Shown in pieces: positions 56,620 to 64,000 of a stretch of DNA of 64,000 bases. The notes under the pieces are model-generated. The model saw only the letters and a list, made by a program, of their open reading frames with translations. It searched no databases and was not told the DNA's origin. The stretch comes from Variovorax sp. HW608 (GTDB lineage: Bacteria > Pseudomonadota > Gammaproteobacteria > Burkholderiales > Burkholderiaceae_C). The stretch is from contig NZ_LT607803.1 of the NCBI RefSeq assembly GCF_900090195.1, positions 6,908,229 through 6,972,228 of the forward strand, read 5' to 3'. The translations under genes were made by a program, and so were the position numbers. The first letter of the stretch is position 1. Each line of letters begins with the position of its first letter.

Positions 56620-59073
56620 ATGGCGCAGACGCGCGCGTCTGCTTTCGAAGCAGCCGCGGCACCGCCGGTGATGGCCGTGGCACTGATCTCGGCTGCGGCA
56701 CTGGCCTACGAGATTCTGCTGATGCGGCTGTTCTCGATCGTGCTGTGGCACCACTTCGCCTACATGATCATCAGCCTGGCGCTCCTGGGCTACGGCGCCA
56801 GCGGCGCGGTGCTGACCCTGGCGCCGCGGGTGATGCAGCGACATTTCGCGCCGTTGTTCAGCGCGGCGGCGACGGCCTTCGGCGCCAGTGCCATCGGCTG
56901 CTTCCTGCTGGCGCAGCGCGTGCCCTTCAATCCGCTGGAACTGCTGTGGGATCCGCGCCAGCCGGCCTACCTGCTGGCGGTGTACCTGCTGCTCCTGCTG
57001 CCCTTCCTGTGCGCGGGCGCCTGCACGTGCATGGCGCTTTCCACCTTTCGCGGCATGCAGCCGCGCATCTACAGCTTCGACATCCTGGGCGCCGGCGCGG
57101 GGAGCCTGGGCATCGTGGCACTGTTGTTCGTGTTGTCGCCGGCCGCAGCCCTGAAGTTGCTTGGTGCGCTGGGCGGCATCGCGGCGGCCCTGGCCTGGCT
57201 CGAAAGCGGGCGCCCTCGGCGATGGCCGGCGGCTCTGCTGGCCGCTCTGGCCGGCGTGCCGCTGCTGTTGCCGGCCGCGTGGCTGGCGCCGGTCATGTCG
57301 CCGTACAAGGAGTTGTCCCAGACGCTGCGCATTCCCGAGGCGAGGGTCGTGCTCGAGCGATCGAGTCCGCTGGGCCTCGTCAGCGTGGTCGAAAGCCCGC
57401 GGATTCCGCTGCGCCACGTGCCGGGCCTGAGCCTCAATGCTTCGGTCGAACCGCCGCCGCAGTGGGGCATCTTCATCGACGGCGAAAGCCTCAGCGCGTT
57501 GACCCGCTTCGACGGGCAGCGCGGCAGCCTCGCGTACCTCGACCAGATCAGCTCGGCGCTTCCCTACCACCTGCTGCGCCGCCCGCACGTGCTGGTTCTG
57601 GGTGCGGGTGCCGGGGCCGACGTGCTGCAGGCCTACTACCACCAGGCGCGCGAGATCGACGCGGTGGAGCTGAACCCGCAGGTGGTCGACCTGGTCAGGC
57701 ATCGCTTCGCCGACGCCGCGGGCGGCCTCTATTCCGGGATCGCGCACGTGCACGTGGCAGAGGCGCGCGGCTTCGTCGCCGCCAGCGAAGCGCGCTACGA
57801 CCTCATCCAGGTGGCGCTGCTCGATTCGTTCAGCGCATCTTCAGCCGGCCTCTACGCGCTGTCGGAAAACTACCTCTACACCGTCGAAGCCTTGCAGGAC
57901 AGCCTGCGCCACCTGACGCCCGGCGGCCTGCTCGCGATCACGCGCTGGGTTTCGCTGCCGCCGCGCGACGCGCTGAAGCTCTTTGCCGCCGCCATCGCCG
58001 CGCTGGAGCGTTCGGGCATCGCCGATCCCGGCTCGCGGCTGGTGATGATCCGCAGCTGGAAGACCGTCACGCTGCTGGTCCGCAATGGCAGCTTCAGCGC
58101 CGATGACATCGCCGCGACCCAGGCCTTCTGCCGCGCACGCTCCTTCGACCTTGCGTTCTATCCCGGCATGCAGCCCGAGGAAGCGAACCGCTACAACGTG
58201 GTCGAGCGCCCCGACCTCTTCGACGGCGCCACGGCACTGCTGGGTCCGGACCGGGACGCCTTCATGCGCGACTACAAGTTCCACATCGCGCCAGCCACCG
58301 ACGACAGGCCGCATTTCTTCCACTTTTTCAAGTGGCGCTCGCTGCCCGAACTCCTGGCGCTCAAGGAACAGGGCGGGCTGCCGCTCCTGGAATGGGGCTA
58401 TCCGGTGCTGGTGGCGACGCTGGTCCAGGCCACGGTGGCCAGCCTTCTGCTGATCGGACTGCCCGTGGCGTGGGTCACCCGTGCCGGCGCCCGGCGGAAC
58501 GGGCCCGTCACACCGCCCCGTTCGCGCGGCCGCGTGCTGGTCTATTTCCTGGCGATCGGATTCGGCTTCATGTTCATCGAGATCGCGTTCATCCAGAAAT
58601 TCGTCCTCTTCCTGAGCCACCCACTGCGTGCCGTCGCGGTGGTGCTGTTCGCCTTCCTGCTCTTTGCCGGTGTCGGCAGCCGGGTGGCCGGGCGCCTGCA
58701 ACACCGGACGCGGCTCCAGCCTGCCCTGGCGATGGTGGTGGGAGGGCTGGCCGCGTCGGCGGTGCTCTGCCTGCTGCTGCTTCCCTGGCTCTTCCGGCAT
58801 GCGATGGGTTTGCCGGACGCAGCGAGGATGCTGCTCTCGGCCGTCCTCATCGCGCCATTGGCCTTCTGCATGGGCATGCCCTTCCCACTGGGTCTGTCGC
58901 GGGTGGAAGCCATCGACGCAAGGCTCATTCCCTGGGCCTGGGGCGTCAACGGCTGTGCGTCGGTCACCGGCGCTGTGCTGGCCACGCTGCTCGCGATCCA
59001 CGTGGGTTTCACCGCAGTCATCATCGCGGCGCTGCTGCTGTACATGCTCGCGGTGGCGTGCGCGCCGGGATGA
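56620..59073 (+). CDS. Polytopic membrane protein with spermidine synthase-like domain
   Basis: An 817-residue fusion. The N-terminal region (about 17-215) has six or so membrane helices, starting AVALISAAALAYEILLMRLF. A central SAM/aminopropyltransferase-like domain follows (about 300-560) with VLVLGAGAGADVLQAYYH, IDAVELNPQVVDLVRHRF and ALLDSFSASSAGLYALSENY. A second membrane block covers about 580-810 with GFGFMFIEIAFIQKFVLFLS. The family is widespread but uncharacterised; polyamine synthesis is not established. ATG 56620 follows GAGGGAG. Likely cotranscribed with pcm. Confidence 0.88.
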   Translation: MAQTRASAFEAAAAPPVMAVALISAAALAYEILLMRLFSIVLWHHFAYMIISLALLGYGASGAVLTLAPRVMQRHFAPLFSAAATAFGASAIGCFLLAQRVPFNPLELLWDPRQPAYLLAVYLLLLLPFLCAGACTCMALSTFRGMQPRIYSFDILGAGAGSLGIVALLFVLSPAAALKLLGALGGIAAALAWLESGRPRRWPAALLAALAGVPLLLPAAWLAPVMSPYKELSQTLRIPEARVVLERSSPLGLVSVVESPRIPLRHVPGLSLNASVEPPPQWGIFIDGESLSALTRFDGQRGSLAYLDQISSALPYHLLRRPHVLVLGAGAGADVLQAYYHQAREIDAVELNPQVVDLVRHRFADAAGGLYSGIAHVHVAEARGFVAASEARYDLIQVALLDSFSASSAGLYALSENYLYTVEALQDSLRHLTPGGLLAITRWVSLPPRDALKLFAAAIAALERSGIADPGSRLVMIRSWKTVTLLVRNGSFSADDIAATQAFCRARSFDLAFYPGMQPEEANRYNVVERPDLFDGATALLGPDRDAFMRDYKFHIAPATDDRPHFFHFFKWRSLPELLALKEQGGLPLLEWGYPVLVATLVQATVASLLLIGLPVAWVTRAGARRNGPVTPPRSRGRVLVYFLAIGFGFMFIEIAFIQKFVLFLSHPLRAVAVVLFAFLLFAGVGSRVAGRLQHRTRLQPALAMVVGGLAASAVLCLLLLPWLFRHAMGLPDAARMLLSAVLIAPLAFCMGMPFPLGLSRVEAIDARLIPWAWGVNGCASVTGAVLATLLAIHVGFTAVIIAALLLYMLAVACAPG

Positions 59074-59153
59074 CACCCCCCGCTGATCCCTGCCATGCGC
59101 CATACCTCGTTTGGAAGACGATTTGCATCGGCTCGGCGTGTCCAATCCTCGGC

Positions 59154-62100
59154 ATGGCGCCGCCGATCGTCCTCAAGCTGACCGGTCGTGAGAACACGAA
59201 GCCCGAGGTGCCCGCGCTTCTGCGGTCTTCCGCGCGAGGCATTGGTGGCCCCTCTTCAGAGGACGATTTCCTGCCCGACGGCCTTTTGACGCCGAAGGCC
59301 GGCATCGAGCTCGGCGCCGGCGCGCGCGGAGCTGCCGAGACCGCGGCCTGTGAGCTCACGGCGGCGGAAGACGAAGTGCTGGTGATCGACCTCGCCGACG
59401 GCAGCACGCTGATCACCAGCCCCGCCCGGCTGCGCGATGCCTTGCTGCGCAACCGGCCCGATCTGGTCGACGACGAGGGCCGCGTTCTCTTCGACCGCCT
59501 GAACGCCGAAGGCACGCTGCTGCAGCGCGGCGTGTTCCCGGATGCCGTCGGCAGCCTCGTGAGCCGCGTGGTGTCGTTGGCCGTGGGCCGCGATGCGCTG
59601 ACCGATGCGGCAGAGGCGCTCGTCGCCGGCAAGGGCGGCAAGCAGGCAGCGGCACTGGACGCCGGCGTGAGCTGGCTCGCCACCCAGGCGCTCATGACCG
59701 TCATCGAGGAGCGCCTCGGCCGCCCGGCCGGCCATCTCTACCGCTGGAGCGATGCGAGCGGCAAGCTCGAAGGCGGCGCGGCCGACGACGTCGCCGCGAT
59801 GACCGGCGCGGACGGCAAGGCGCGTGCTGCGCTGGTCTTCATCCACGGCACCGCATCGAGCACGCTCGGCAGCTTCGCCGACCTGCAGCGCAGCGACCGC
59901 GGGTTCTGGGCGCGGCTCGAAAGCCGGTTTCCGGGCGGCATCTACGGCTTCGAGCACCGCACGCTGTCCGAAAGCCCGATCGAGAACGCGCTGCAGCTCG
60001 CGACAGCCCTGCCCAAGGGCGCATGCATCAGCCTCGTGACGCATTCGCGCGGCGGCCTCGTCGGCGACCTGATGTGCCTCCTGGACATCGACCGCCACGT
60101 CGACGGCTACAGCTTCGCCTTCCCCGGCGTGGGCGATGCGCAGGGCCGCGAAGCCGAAGTGCACGAGGAGCTCGACAGCGCGCATGCCGAGCAGCGCGAG
60201 CAACTGCGCCATCTGTTCGCGATGCTGCGCGACAAGGCGCCGGTGATCGAGCGCTACGTGCGCGTCGCGAGCCCTTCGCAGGGCACCAAGCTCGCGAGCG
60301 GCAACTTCGACGTCTTCCTCTCGGGCCTCTTGACGCTGATCGGCCGCGTGCCGTTCTTCTTCGGCAATCCGATGTATTCGGCGTTCAAGCGCGTGGTGAT
60401 CGAGATCGCGCGCAACCGCACCAACCCGCACCTGGTGCCGGGCATCGAGGCGATGCTGCCCGACTCGCCGATGGCGGCGCTGCTGCGCGATGCGGCGGTG
60501 CAGCCCGGCATCCGCATGGCGCTGATCGCGGGCGACATCCAGGACGGCAACCTGCTCATGCGCATGGGCACGCTGCTCACCGACTTCCTGCTGTTCGACA
60601 ACACCGACAACGACCTCGTGGTCGACACCGCCTCCATGCTGGCCGGCATCGCGGTCAAGGCCCAGGCGCGCGTGATGTTCGACCGCGCAGCGGACGTCTC
60701 GCATTTCAGCTACTTCGCCAACCTGGAAACCCGCAGCGCGATGCGCGACTGGCTGGTGCAGGACCGGCCCGACGACCTCGCCGCCTTCCGCGTCGTGCCG
60801 CCGCAGTTCACCACCCTCGACGCGGCCGGCATCGGCGCCTCGCGCGACGCAGCCGGCGTGGAGCGGCCCATCGTCGTGGTGCTGCCCGGCGTGATGGGCA
60901 CCTGCCTCGATGCCGACGGCAAGCGCGTGTGGCTCAACCCGGTCAGCCTCGTTGCGGGGGGGCTCAGCGACATCGCCTTCGATGCCGACAAGGTGACCAC
61001 CAGCGGCCTCTTCGGCAGGACCTACGGCGCGATCTGCGACCACCTCGCCGGCAGCCATCGCGTGGTGCCCTTCCCTTACGACTGGCGCCAGCCGCTCGAC
61101 GTGCTGGGCGAGCGGCTCGGCACCTTCCTGGACCTGCTGCTGAAGCAGAGCACGCAGCCGATCCGCCTGCTCGCGCACAGCATGGGCGGGCTGGTGGTGC
61201 GCGCCTGCATCTACCGGCAGCGCGAGGTGATGGACCGGCTGATGGCGCGCGACGGCGCGCGCCTGGTCATGGCCGGCACGCCCCACCAGGGCTCGCATTC
61301 GATGGTCGGGAACATGCTCGGCAAGGGCGATGCGCTGCGCACGCTCGCGCGGCTCGACGTGCGCCACGACATGCAGCAAGTGCTCGACATCGTCTCGGGC
61401 TTCCGCGGGGCGCTGCAATTGCTGCCGCGCCCCGGCTTCATCGACACCTTCGAAGGCCAGCCCGACGGCGGCGAGCCGCAGCAGTACTGGCGCCCCGAGG
61501 GCTGGAAGACGCTGAAGGCGCTCAACACCGACCTGTGGTTCGGCGACCAGCGCTGCGGTCAGCCCGATGCCGAGACCTTGGCTTCCGCCGGCTGGCTGTG
61601 GACCGAGGACGCCAAGGCCGGCGCCGATGCCGTGCCGGCGCTGCCCGACGAATACCGCGCGAAGTCGATCTACGTCTTCGGCGTGGCTCCGAACACGCCG
61701 TGCGGCGTCCGCGTGGAAGCGCGCGGCGGGAGCCCGCGCCTGCGCATGGTCGCCACCGCGCGCGGCGACGGCACGGTGACATGGGACTCGGGCCGCATCG
61801 GCGGCATCGGCAGCTTCTACTACCTGCCGGCGGTGCATGGCGATCTGCTCTCGACCCCGTCGGCCTTCGCCGCGCTCGGCGAACTGCTCGTGAGCGGTAC
61901 GACCGTGGCACTCGAACGCACGCCGCCCGCCACGCGCGCGGCCGCGCCCGACCGCCCGGTGAGTTACGACCCCGGTCCGCCGAACGCCGTCGACGACGCG
62001 GACCTCGCCGCGGCCGTGGTCGGCGGCACGCCCGACGGCCACGTCACCACGCGCGCCAGGCAGCGGCTCGACGTCAACCTCAAGGCGATGGACCTGCGCT

Positions 62101-64000
62101 TCCTCTCGTGCCCGATCATGGTCGGCCACTACGAGAACGACACGATGGCCGGCACCGAGGCGCTCATCGACACCGAACTCATGGACGGCCAGCTCGCGCA
62201 GCGCCGCGCGCTCGACCTCTACGCTGGCCCGCTCGGCACCGCGGCGGTGGTGCTGCGCACGCCCAGTGCGATCGAGCGCCGGCGCGGCGTGCTCACCGGC
62301 GCGGTGGTCACCGGCCTCGGCAGCTACGAAGGCAGCCTGAGCCAGGACGCGCTGATGATCGCGGTGCGCGCCGGCGTGCTGCGCTACCTGCTGCAGGTGG
62401 TCGACGTGATGGGCCGCGAAGACCGCGAAGTGCCGCTCGCGACCCTGCTTCTCGGCTACAACTCCTCGGCCAACCTGAGCATCGCGGGCTCGGTCGAGGC
62501 GGTGGTGCGCGGCGTGGTCGATGCCAACGAGAAATTCAGGCGCACCACCGGGCTGTCGGTGCGCGTGTCGAAGCTCGACATCGTCGAGCTCTATCTCGAC
62601 ACCGCCATCACCGCGGTCTACGAGCTGCGCCAGCTCGCCCCGCGCCTGCAAACGGCTGCCGCGGCGAAAGACACGCTGCTGGCCTGCAACCCCGAGCTGG
62701 TGCAGGGCCCGGGGCTGCGCCAGCGCCTGTTCGATGCGCGCGGCGCGAGCTACTGGCCGCGGCTGATCGTCACCGATGCCGACGACCCGCCTGCCGCGCC
62801 GCGACCCGACGGCGCGACGCGGCTCGCCGACCGGCTGCGCTTCCTCTACGTCGGCCAGCGCGCGCGGGCCGAGACCGTCGTCCAGCAGCGCCAGCCGAGC
62901 CTGATCGAGACGCTGGTGCGCCAGCAGATCAGCCAGACGCAGTGGAACGCCGACTTCGGCCGCATGCTGTTCCAGCTCATCGTGCCGCCGGACTTCAAGG
63001 ATGCGGCGCGGCAGTTGCAGCGCATCGTGCTGGTGGTCGATGGCGCGACCGCCAACCTGCCGTGGGAGCTGATGCTGACCGATCCGCTGTTCACGCCCGA
63101 GGCGCAGACCGACGGCCCGCTCGTGCCGCTGGCGCTGTGCACGCCGGTGGTGCGGCAGCTTTCTTCCTCGGCGTACCGGCGCGATGTGCGGCAGAGCGTG
63201 GCGCGCAGCGCCTACGTGGTCGGCAACCCGTCGGTGCAGGGCTTCGCGGCGGCGTTTCCCGATCCCGCCCATCCGCAGGCCGGCGACCCCGACCCGCTTG
63301 CCGGCGCCGAAGTGGAAGCGACCGCGGTCGCGCGCCTGCTGACGAACCTGGGCTACGAAGTGGGCCAAGCCATCGGCGCCGACAACCTCGCCTCCGACGT
63401 GCTGGCGAAGCTCTATCGCAAGCCCTACCGCATCCTGCATGTCTCGGCGCACGGTGTGTTCGAGCAGCAGCACGTGGACGGGCTGCGCCGCAGCGGCGTC
63501 GTGCTCTCGGGCGGGCTGCTCATCACCGCGGCCGAGATCGAGGCGATGGAGTCGGTGCCCGAACTGGTCTTCCTCAACTGCTGCCACCTCGGCCGGGTCG
63601 ACCCGGGCGGCGCGCCCGGGCCGACCGTGCGCGACGGCAACAAGCTGGCCGGCAGCGTGGCGCGCGAGCTGATGGCGATCGGCGTGCGCTGCGTGGTGGT
63701 GGCGGGCTGGGCGGTCGACGACAAGCTGGCGCAGCAGTTCGGCGAGGTGTTCTACCGGTCGCTGCTGCAGAACCGCCGTCCCTTCGGCGAAGCCGTCTTC
63801 GAGGCGCGGCAGGCCCTCTGGGCCGCGCGGCCCGACAACCTGACCTGGGGCGCCTTCCAGGCCTACGGCGACCCGCTCTGGCTCGCCGAGCCCGCCGACG
63901 CGGCGGCCGGTGCCGCCAAGGGCGAAGCGCCCTTCGTCTCGATCGACGAGATGCTCGACGAACTCGCGCGCGCCCGGCTCGAGATTGCGCGCCGCCCCGA
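59154..64000 (+). CDS. Giant lipase-like/CHAT-domain protein (3' end beyond window)
   Basis: One open frame of over 1,615 codons. Domain order: a first alpha/beta-hydrolase module with oxyanion LVFIHGTASS (His231) and nucleophile VTHSRGGLVG (Ser298); a second, lecithin:cholesterol acyltransferase-like module with VVLPGVMGT (Pro578), PYDWRQPL and AHSMGGLVV (Ser676); a mixed linker of about 500 residues; and a CHAT caspase-like protease domain from about 1280, with HVSAHGVF (His1433) and FLNCCHLG (Cys1477, in the AC position of SACxTG). No signal peptide or membrane segment is visible. ATG 59154 is the only nearby in-frame start. It is not reported as a named system that I know of. Confidence 0.85.
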   Translation, partial: MAPPIVLKLTGRENTKPEVPALLRSSARGIGGPSSEDDFLPDGLLTPKAGIELGAGARGAAETAACELTAAEDEVLVIDLADGSTLITSPARLRDALLRNRPDLVDDEGRVLFDRLNAEGTLLQRGVFPDAVGSLVSRVVSLAVGRDALTDAAEALVAGKGGKQAAALDAGVSWLATQALMTVIEERLGRPAGHLYRWSDASGKLEGGAADDVAAMTGADGKARAALVFIHGTASSTLGSFADLQRSDRGFWARLESRFPGGIYGFEHRTLSESPIENALQLATALPKGACISLVTHSRGGLVGDLMCLLDIDRHVDGYSFAFPGVGDAQGREAEVHEELDSAHAEQREQLRHLFAMLRDKAPVIERYVRVASPSQGTKLASGNFDVFLSGLLTLIGRVPFFFGNPMYSAFKRVVIEIARNRTNPHLVPGIEAMLPDSPMAALLRDAAVQPGIRMALIAGDIQDGNLLMRMGTLLTDFLLFDNTDNDLVVDTASMLAGIAVKAQARVMFDRAADVSHFSYFANLETRSAMRDWLVQDRPDDLAAFRVVPPQFTTLDAAGIGASRDAAGVERPIVVVLPGVMGTCLDADGKRVWLNPVSLVAGGLSDIAFDADKVTTSGLFGRTYGAICDHLAGSHRVVPFPYDWRQPLDVLGERLGTFLDLLLKQSTQPIRLLAHSMGGLVVRACIYRQREVMDRLMARDGARLVMAGTPHQGSHSMVGNMLGKGDALRTLARLDVRHDMQQVLDIVSGFRGALQLLPRPGFIDTFEGQPDGGEPQQYWRPEGWKTLKALNTDLWFGDQRCGQPDAETLASAGWLWTEDAKAGADAVPALPDEYRAKSIYVFGVAPNTPCGVRVEARGGSPRLRMVATARGDGTVTWDSGRIGGIGSFYYLPAVHGDLLSTPSAFAALGELLVSGTTVALERTPPATRAAAPDRPVSYDPGPPNAVDDADLAAAVVGGTPDGHVTTRARQRLDVNLKAMDLRFLSCPIMVGHYENDTMAGTEALIDTELMDGQLAQRRALDLYAGPLGTAAVVLRTPSAIERRRGVLTGAVVTGLGSYEGSLSQDALMIAVRAGVLRYLLQVVDVMGREDREVPLATLLLGYNSSANLSIAGSVEAVVRGVVDANEKFRRTTGLSVRVSKLDIVELYLDTAITAVYELRQLAPRLQTAAAAKDTLLACNPELVQGPGLRQRLFDARGASYWPRLIVTDADDPPAAPRPDGATRLADRLRFLYVGQRARAETVVQQRQPSLIETLVRQQISQTQWNADFGRMLFQLIVPPDFKDAARQLQRIVLVVDGATANLPWELMLTDPLFTPEAQTDGPLVPLALCTPVVRQLSSSAYRRDVRQSVARSAYVVGNPSVQGFAAAFPDPAHPQAGDPDPLAGAEVEATAVARLLTNLGYEVGQAIGADNLASDVLAKLYRKPYRILHVSAHGVFEQQHVDGLRRSGVVLSGGLLITAAEIEAMESVPELVFLNCCHLGRVDPGGAPGPTVRDGNKLAGSVARELMAIGVRCVVVAGWAVDDKLAQQFGEVFYRSLLQNRRPFGEAVFEARQALWAARPDNLTWGAFQAYGDPLWLAEPADAAAGAAKGEAPFVSIDEMLDELARARLEIARRP

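What the first reader, a model, noticed from the sequence alone, without database searches (positions are those of the whole stretch)
59154..64000. Two lipase-like domains fused to a CHAT protease in one giant protein
CHAT domains are caspase-like proteases that in bacteria work in regulated cell death and phage defence, often with TPR partners, gasdermins or as Craspase. Here the CHAT domain (His1433/Cys1477) follows two alpha/beta-hydrolase modules with intact HSRGG and HSMGG elbows, one of LCAT (phospholipid acyltransferase) type. A protease that cuts its own fusion to free two membrane-lipid hydrolases is a plausible self-killing device. Domain content and active sites are seen; function is inference.
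Basis: partly seen in the sequence, partly recalled or inferred. Interest (0 to 1): 0.8.

Follow-up and report, generated by a model that had tools for sequence, protein, structure and literature searches.

The report
Protease-gated twin lipase, caspase partner lost
A very large bacterial protein joins two fat-splitting enzymes to a caspase-like protease and probably works as a controlled cell-killing weapon, but in this strain its usual partner, a second caspase gene next door, has been lost.

Summary
The frame is complete beyond the window: 59154-65090, 1978 residues. Models match lipases, lysosomal phospholipase A2/LCAT, and CHAT proteases with separases. A TPR-S-like end follows, recognised in 16 of 23 family members but not in the window protein.

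The family is patchy but conserved: in 104 distinct loci all three active sites are almost unchanged. New here: of 96 loci that could be judged, 62 have a C14 caspase gene just upstream. Neighbours of relatives include TIR, STAND, restriction-modification and peptidoglycan-hydrolase genes. Related lipase modules are fused to subtilisin or trypsin elsewhere. R928, kept in 103 of 104 sequences, lies in a variable linker between lipases and protease half: a candidate cut site.

The Variovorax strain in the window has lost the caspase gene and the ribosome-binding site; six close relatives keep the gene. Its protein has changed faster than neighbouring genes. Best reading: protease-gated lipase effector of a conflict system, orphaned here. 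Function is untested.

The parts
59154..64000 (+). Part inside the window of the 1978-residue protein (stop at window coordinate 65090, L002:9319): N-terminal beta-rich part, hydrolase 1, hydrolase 2, M17_N-like middle domain, CHAT, then a TPR-S-like C-terminus that lies mostly beyond the window
59769..60788 (+). Hydrolase 1 (about residues 206-545), DUF7379; nucleophile Ser298 at 60045-60047, candidate triad Asp487 and His517
   Evidence: Pfam; model (mean pLDDT 86.1 for residues 1-560) and lipase matches; S298 101 of 101, D487 and H517 104 of 104. The triad is my assignment from conservation
60861..61928 (+). Hydrolase 2 (about residues 570-925), LCAT/lysosomal phospholipase A2 type; nucleophile Ser676 at 61179-61181, candidate triad Asp872 and His895
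   Evidence: Pfam; profile against PDB; Foldseek 4x90 E 9.8e-10; S676 100 of 104 (4 Gly), D872 and H895 104 of 104. The triad is my assignment
61935..61937 (+). Arg928, nearly invariant Arg in a variable linker between the hydrolases and the protease half: candidate processing site
   Evidence: 81 of 81, 103 of 104; pLDDT under 50 at residues 928-930 inside a linker whose ten-residue means are 73-77
62061..62753 (+). Middle domain (about residues 970-1200), weakly like the N-terminal domain of M17 aminopeptidases in relatives
   Evidence: Peptidase_M17_N in 2 of 23; L174 E 6.3e-7, L176 E 0.0037
62955..63872 (+). CHAT protease domain (residues 1268-1573); His1433 at 63450-63452, Cys1477 at 63582-63584
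   Evidence: Pfam; Foldseek to Csx29, separase, gingipain R, SAVED-CHAT; H and C 100 of 100
59088..59147 (+). About 60 bp resembling the stretch just upstream of the caspase gene in related Variovorax; the caspase gene itself is absent here
   Evidence: matches L073 9065-9123 (83%), L069 9019-9078 (81%), L116 9019-9052 (88%); synteny with L116 resumes at window 59152, two bases before the ATG, and the L116 caspase has no match in the region

Best explanation
It is the lipolytic effector of a bacterial conflict (programmed cell death or anti-invader) system. The N-terminal half carries two lipase-fold hydrolases, one of lysosomal phospholipase A2/LCAT type. The C-terminal half carries a CHAT protease and a TPR-S-like region that probably senses a signal. 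On activation the CHAT protease, in most relatives judged together with or below a separately encoded C14 caspase, is proposed to cut at Arg928 and free or unlock the twin hydrolases, which then attack the cell's own membrane lipids. Shown by sequence or model: domains, fold matches, conserved active sites, caspase linkage, defence-type neighbours of relatives, the conserved Arg in a variable linker, absence of the caspase gene in the window strain. Inferred: the signal, cleavage, lipid substrate and killing. In the window strain the protein is probably an orphan with weakened expression and relaxed selection.
For: Domains and folds. Active sites in 104 loci. C14 caspase within 1.5 kb upstream on the same strand in 62 loci, absent in 34, not judgeable in 8; in 1.47 Mb of flanks only three other caspase hits, one directly downstream and two second downstream of the gene. 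Caspase His motif in 50 of 51 and Cys motif in 48 of 51; three tested caspases match PADLOC's caspase model at 8e-18 or better. Neighbours, by own gene calls in 80 of the 104 loci: TIR in 10 of 80 loci, 8 of 276 genes at distance 1-2, 6 of 358 at 3-5, 0 of 282 further out; STAND, TIR and FGE proteins, and an NB-ARC match below cut-off; restriction-modification genes on an Azotobacter plasmid; SIR2 and a nuclease near a short LCAT-CHAT relative, and TIR proteins on both sides of a CHAT relative, on Rhizobium plasmids. Protease swapping: DUF7379 with subtilisin, LCAT type with trypsin. R928. Loss in the window strain; elevated protein change.
Against: No enzyme, cleavage, toxicity or phage result exists. 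34 of 96 loci lack the adjacent caspase, so it is not essential to the family. The window locus is not in a recognisable defence island: the neighbours read are a PCMT-like gene, a spermidine-synthase-like gene and a sugar ABC transporter (names from recalled motifs). TIR enrichment is modest. TPR-S is not significant in the window protein itself. PADLOC finds only a weak BovA match in the window protein, E 0.0019. R58, which first looked like a second cut site, lies in an ordered helix in the model. The linker around R928 is only mildly low in confidence apart from residues 928-930. Foldseek TM-scores are modest (4x90 0.58 by target, Csx29 0.29, 1ji3 0.48) and the second model's overall arrangement is uncertain (pTM 0.54). 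Four of 104 sequences have Gly for Ser676.
Confidence: 0.55

Rival explanations
1. In the window strain the gene is a decaying remnant with no present function: the partner caspase and the ribosome-binding site are gone and selection on the protein has relaxed. (Not exclusive of the best explanation for the family.)
For: Caspase gene absent and GAGGAG-type site of three relatives missing. Nonsynonymous to synonymous changes on the window branch 80:124 against 30:106 on the L015 branch (p 0.0009) and 23:78 in six neighbouring genes of the window strain (p 0.0046); the same gene against neighbours on the L015 branch gives p 0.22. No sigma-70-like promoter found at 58900-59300.
Against: Frame intact over 1978 codons, catalytic residues kept. 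dN/dS to three close relatives is 0.15-0.20 (0.35 to the more distant L073), below neutral. 33 other loci also lack the caspase and keep the active sites, one of them with Gly for Ser676. Faster change could also be adaptation.
Confidence: 0.3
2. A secreted or injected antibacterial toxin (type VI or contact-dependent) in which lipases, proteases and wall hydrolases attack rival cells.
For: Peptidoglycan-cleaving or -binding proteins next to the gene in four loci: GH19 (L109), PG_binding (L142), muramidase (L144), GH108 (L065). Best profile match of hydrolase 2 in the PDB is 4r1d, which I recall as the type VI lipase Tle4.
Against: No secretion genes noticed beside the gene in the lists, though no search for them was made. 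No signal peptide apparent by eye. CHAT, TPR-S, caspase, TIR and STAND company is that of intracellular signalling systems.
Confidence: 0.12
3. A regulator of the cell's own lipid turnover or division, not defence; the CHAT domain acts as in HetF (recalled).
For: Some CHAT proteins serve development (recalled); the window neighbourhood is metabolic.
Against: Patchy presence (8 of 37 genomes of the genus, 22 of 349 of the order), relatives on plasmids, swapping of protease types, defence-type neighbours of relatives.
Confidence: 0.13
4. The C14 caspase, not CHAT, is the executioner, and the hydrolase-CHAT protein is only its activator or substrate.
For: Linkage in 62 of 96 loci; orthocaspases cut after basic residues (PMC6426788, abstract seen in listing).
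Against: R928 and the hydrolase sites are about equally conserved in loci without a caspase.
Confidence: 0.25

Closest known systems
TPR-CHAT protease Csx29 of Craspase (type III-E CRISPR)
   Same: CHAT protease; top Foldseek match (7y9x, E 4.6e-10); TPR-type region and CHAT in one protein
   Different: Here two lipases are fused to it; no Cas7-11 or Csx30 was noticed in the loci read (not searched for); the TPR-S-like part lies C-terminal to CHAT
SAVED-CHAT with PCaspase (type III-B CRISPR; biology recalled, structure 8tl0 seen)
   Same: A CHAT protease beside a separate caspase, suggesting a proteolytic cascade
   Different: No SAVED match in the Pfam scan; here the CHAT protein carries lipases
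VMAP/MoxR-vWA ternary systems and the EACC1-caspase two-gene system (Kaur et al. 2020, PMC7159879: passages and section 33 seen)
   Same: Caspase paired with an alpha/beta-hydrolase; protease proposed to deploy effectors by proteolysis; the DUF7379-subtilisin fusion L023 sits among MoxR/VMAP-like genes (below Pfam cut-offs)
   Different: The main text has no word beginning with CHAT or lipase; here both enzymes are one protein and no MoxR-vWA pair was noticed beside it
Protease-gasdermin pairs and CARD-NLR systems (PMC12881547 and PMC13236601, passages seen)
   Same: Protease-activated membrane-damaging effector; phospholipases named as alternative effectors
   Different: Effector is a lipase pair fused to the protease, not a separate pore former
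Lysosomal phospholipase A2/LCAT family
   Same: Hydrolase 2: Pfam LCAT in 23 of 23 members, Foldseek 4x90 E 9.8e-10
   Different: Part of a bacterial fusion; substrate unknown

Membership tests
CHAT proteases (PF12770) | Profile match over the curated cut-off and His/Cys dyad | tested here: met
   110.5 bits against cut-off 24; H1433 and C1477 100 of 100, 4 rows gapped
CHAT proteases (PF12770) | Caspase/separase-like fold | tested here: met
   Foldseek to Csx29, separase, gingipain R at E 4.8e-6 or better, with modest TM-scores
CHAT proteases (PF12770) | Proteolytic activity | not testable with these tools
   needs bench work
LCAT/phospholipase A2 type hydrolases (PF02450) | Profile match and fold with Ser-Asp-His triad | tested here: met
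   25.1 bits against 21; fold 4x90; S676 100 of 104, D872 and H895 104 of 104; triad assigned from conservation
DUF7379 (PF24096) | Profile match over cut-off; alpha/beta-hydrolase fold | tested here: met
   100 bits against 33; lipase structures matched
TPR-S (PF20308) | Profile match in the C-terminal part | tested here: inconclusive
   16 of 23 members match at E <= 0.01, the window protein does not
Craspase (type III-E CRISPR) | Cas7-11/gRAMP and Csx30 gene neighbours | tested here: inconclusive
   None noticed among the neighbours read; no dedicated search was made
VMAP/MoxR-vWA ternary conflict systems | MoxR AAA+, vWA and VMAP genes beside the effector | tested here: inconclusive
   None noticed by eye among the ORFs flanking the window gene, no profile search made; weak MoxR/VMAP matches beside the subtilisin fusion L023
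Known PADLOC defence systems | Strong match to a model | tested here: not met
   Window protein: BovA E 0.0019 only. The caspase of relatives does match PDLC02987, 8e-18

The most novel reading that the evidence does not exclude
A two-protease cascade (C14 caspase plus CHAT) that unlocks a fused pair of phospholipases by cutting at one conserved Arg: a lipolytic counterpart of gasdermin pyroptosis, widespread in betaproteobacteria, built from interchangeable protease and lipase modules (CHAT, subtilisin, trypsin), and caught in the window strain after loss of the upstream caspase.
Probability: 0.3. Interest if true: 0.8.

Novelty: new variant of a known kind. Interest (0 to 1): 0.62.

Why it matters
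Protease-released pore formers are known in bacteria, fungi and animals. A protease fused to its own lipases, with a caspase gene beside it, would add membrane-lipid destruction as a second output of bacterial caspase signalling, in a form that can be tested with point mutants. Its spread across several phyla, relatives on plasmids and module swapping suggest a defence family that the 2023 PADLOC models do not cover. The window strain offers a natural case of partner loss.

Tried and rejected
R58 as a second processing site: at first it looked as good as R928, but the model puts it in an ordered helix, so I dropped it. The two other C14 genes of the genome (2.05 Mb) as the moved partner: only 26-27% identity over 84 and 118 residues, in a locus with a large TssM-like ORF (TssM is a recalled name), rejected. 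Phage origin: no match in 50,697 phage records. NCBIfam and single-sequence PDB search: nothing. The VIA structural library was not available. Literature: eight searches of open-licence PMC papers listed no description of this architecture; DUF7379 occurs in none of the 25 papers listed of 28 found. The first script alignment had picked wrong-frame ORFs in six of its 29 rows and one truncated row, and was thrown away; one search replaces it. The presence count missed caspases that overlap an extended ORF; one search replaces it. A possible SLOG domain in the TPR-S neighbour protein is recalled and untested.

Rows left out: A1 used 23 of 29 rows; A2 used 52 of 57 listed loci plus the window; A3 used 50 of 56 plus the window; five duplicate loci were removed (109 to 104); the TIR count used the 80 loci with full gene calls.

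Full report
Observation. It starts at ATG 59154 and, in the own genome, ends at window coordinate 65090, giving 1978 residues. The third-codon-position G+C is 0.88-0.96 in this frame from about window 59,530 to 64,930. The four catalytic residues are where they were reported. Pfam gives DUF7379 (E 2.1e-28), LCAT (1.3e-5) and CHAT (1.3e-31), in that order.

Structure. AlphaFold models from 51 and 53 aligned family members have mean pLDDT 86.1 (residues 1-560) and 83.6 (540-1615). Foldseek matches the first part to bacterial lipases (1ji3, E 6e-6, TM 0.48 by target). It matches the second part to lysosomal phospholipase A2 (4x90, 9.8e-10, TM 0.58 by target), LCAT, the Craspase TPR-CHAT protease Csx29 (7y9x, 4.6e-10, TM 0.29), separases, the Arg-specific gingipain R (4.8e-6) and a SAVED-CHAT filament (3.1e-4). 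TM-scores are modest, in part because the query holds several domains, and the pTM of 0.54 means the relative placing of domains in the second model is not reliable. A profile search of the PDB agrees on phospholipase A2/LCAT relatives for hydrolase 2.

Family. 8 of 37 genomes searched in the genus hold a match at E <= 1e-100. Two more match in DUF7379 only; in one of them (L023) the protein also holds a subtilisin (Pfam), and the other (L024) shows the same motifs by eye. In the order, 36 of 349 genomes match at E <= 0.001 and 22 at E <= 1e-100. In 104 distinct sequences, rows with a gap set aside, Ser298 is kept in 101 of 101, Asp487 and His517 in 104 of 104, Ser676 in 100 of 104 (4 Gly), Asp872 and His895 in 104 of 104, His1433 and Cys1477 in 100 of 100. 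TPR-S matches the C-terminal part in 16 of 23 members, not in the window protein.

Partner. A C14 caspase gene lies within 1.5 kb upstream on the same strand in 62 loci; 34 lack it and 8 could not be judged. The first gene-call count put it at the -1 position in 51 of 80 loci; its cluster spans 52 loci, or 23 groups at 70% identity of the main protein. In 1.47 Mb of flanks the caspase profile (E < 1e-8) hits only three other places: directly downstream in L064, and second downstream in L095 and L132. The His motif is kept in 50 of 51 and the Cys motif in 48 of 51 caspases. PADLOC's caspase model matches three tested examples at E 8e-18 or better.

Company and module exchange. In the 80 loci with full gene calls, TIR genes occur in 10: 8 of 276 neighbours at distance 1-2, 6 of 358 at 3-5, none of 282 beyond. 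STAND, FGE and TIR proteins, TPR proteins and an NB-ARC match below its cut-off adjoin several loci without a caspase. Peptidoglycan-cleaving or -binding proteins adjoin four. On plasmids, an Azotobacter copy lies near annotated restriction-modification genes (S subunit and DNA methyltransferase), a short Rhizobium LCAT-CHAT protein lies near SIR2 and a nuclease, and another CHAT relative lies between TIR proteins. DUF7379 is fused to a subtilisin in L023, and an LCAT-type hydrolase to a trypsin in Qingshengfaniella. The recurring theme is one protease plus one or more lipases.

Possible switch. Among 18 basic residues kept in at least 95% of 81 sequences, R58 and R928 have the least conserved surroundings and the most indels, and a small next residue in 83% and 93%. 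Three others (R299, R1238, R683) also precede small residues, but in conserved surroundings. R928 is kept in 103 of 104 sequences and R58 in 97 of 98. The model gives pLDDT under 50 at residues 928-930, one of eight such dips, in a linker of ten-residue means 73-77 between hydrolase 2 and the rest. R58 is in an ordered helix, which counts against it. Since R928 is kept with or without the caspase gene, CHAT is the likelier cutter if it is a cut site. Gingipain R is Arg-specific (title) and, by recall, separases cut after Arg; orthocaspases cut after basic residues (PMC6426788, abstract in listing). In two realigned relatives the Arg is shifted by one or two places. In the minimal LCAT-CHAT protein an Arg stands there too, but in the LCAT-trypsin protein the context differs.

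Loss in this strain. The tree nests the window protein among six Variovorax proteins whose loci all carry the caspase (FastTree, 14 changes of state over the whole tree, with long-branch warnings elsewhere in it). More distant Variovorax homologues (L020-L022) lack it. In the window, about 60 bases resembling the stretch just before the caspase in relatives (59088-59147) lead straight to the ATG of the hydrolase-CHAT gene; synteny with L116 resumes at 59152. The AG-rich stretch before the ATG in L116, L069 and L015 is missing. On the window branch 80 nonsynonymous and 124 synonymous single changes are seen, against 30 and 106 on the L015 branch (p 0.0009; with the outgroup L073 agreeing 34:44 against 9:63, p 2.6e-5) and 23:78 in six neighbouring genes of the window strain (p 0.0046; the same comparison on the L015 branch gives p 0.22). 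Some constraint remains: dN/dS is 0.15-0.20 to three close relatives and 0.35 to L073. This fits relaxed selection after partner loss; adaptation is not excluded.

Interpretation and novelty. The idea that caspases and alpha/beta-hydrolases work together in bacterial conflict systems is in print (Kaur et al. 2020, PMC7159879, passages and section 33), and phospholipases are named as alternative death effectors in CARD-NLR systems (PMC13236601, passages). The fused twin-lipase CHAT protein with an upstream caspase was not seen in the listings of eight full-text searches of open-licence papers; subscription papers, including the 2015 paper I recall as introducing TPR-S, were not available. I therefore call it a new variant of a known kind.

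Noticed in passing
L023:8875-18197 and L024: In two other genomes of the genus the DUF7379 hydrolase is the C-terminal end of a protein that also holds a subtilisin (Pfam in L023, by eye in L024); in L023 it sits beside an AAA+ (MoxR-like), a VMAP-M20-like and a hydrolase-like gene, possibly a new MoxR-type ternary system.
   Followed up: partly
L173:5839-8361: Qingshengfaniella plasmid protein fusing an LCAT-type hydrolase to a trypsin-like protease.
   Followed up: partly
L174:5737-10235: Rhizobium plasmid: minimal LCAT-M17_N-CHAT protein near a SIR2/pYEATS protein and a nuclease.
   Followed up: partly
L109:8167-9795, L142:2050-3069, L144:2266-3237, L065:5151-5774: Peptidoglycan-cleaving or -binding proteins next to the lipase-CHAT gene in four distant loci, three of them in the place usually held by the caspase; suggests a lysis link.
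   Followed up: partly
L095, L117, L132, L051: Four relatives have Gly in place of the second lipase Ser (HGMGG), so hydrolase 2 may be inactive there.
   Followed up: no
L152:7519-15442: Two further C14 caspase genes of the window genome, about 6 kb apart; one lies beside a large TssM-like ORF (recalled motif); both unlike the partner caspase.
   Followed up: partly
L096:15943-17910 and relatives in 15 of 80 loci (six of them 541-656 residues): A TPR-S protein, which weakly matches a PADLOC TIR effector model near its N-terminus (4e-5), follows the lipase-CHAT gene in several Accumulibacter loci; it may make or sense the signal.
   Followed up: partly
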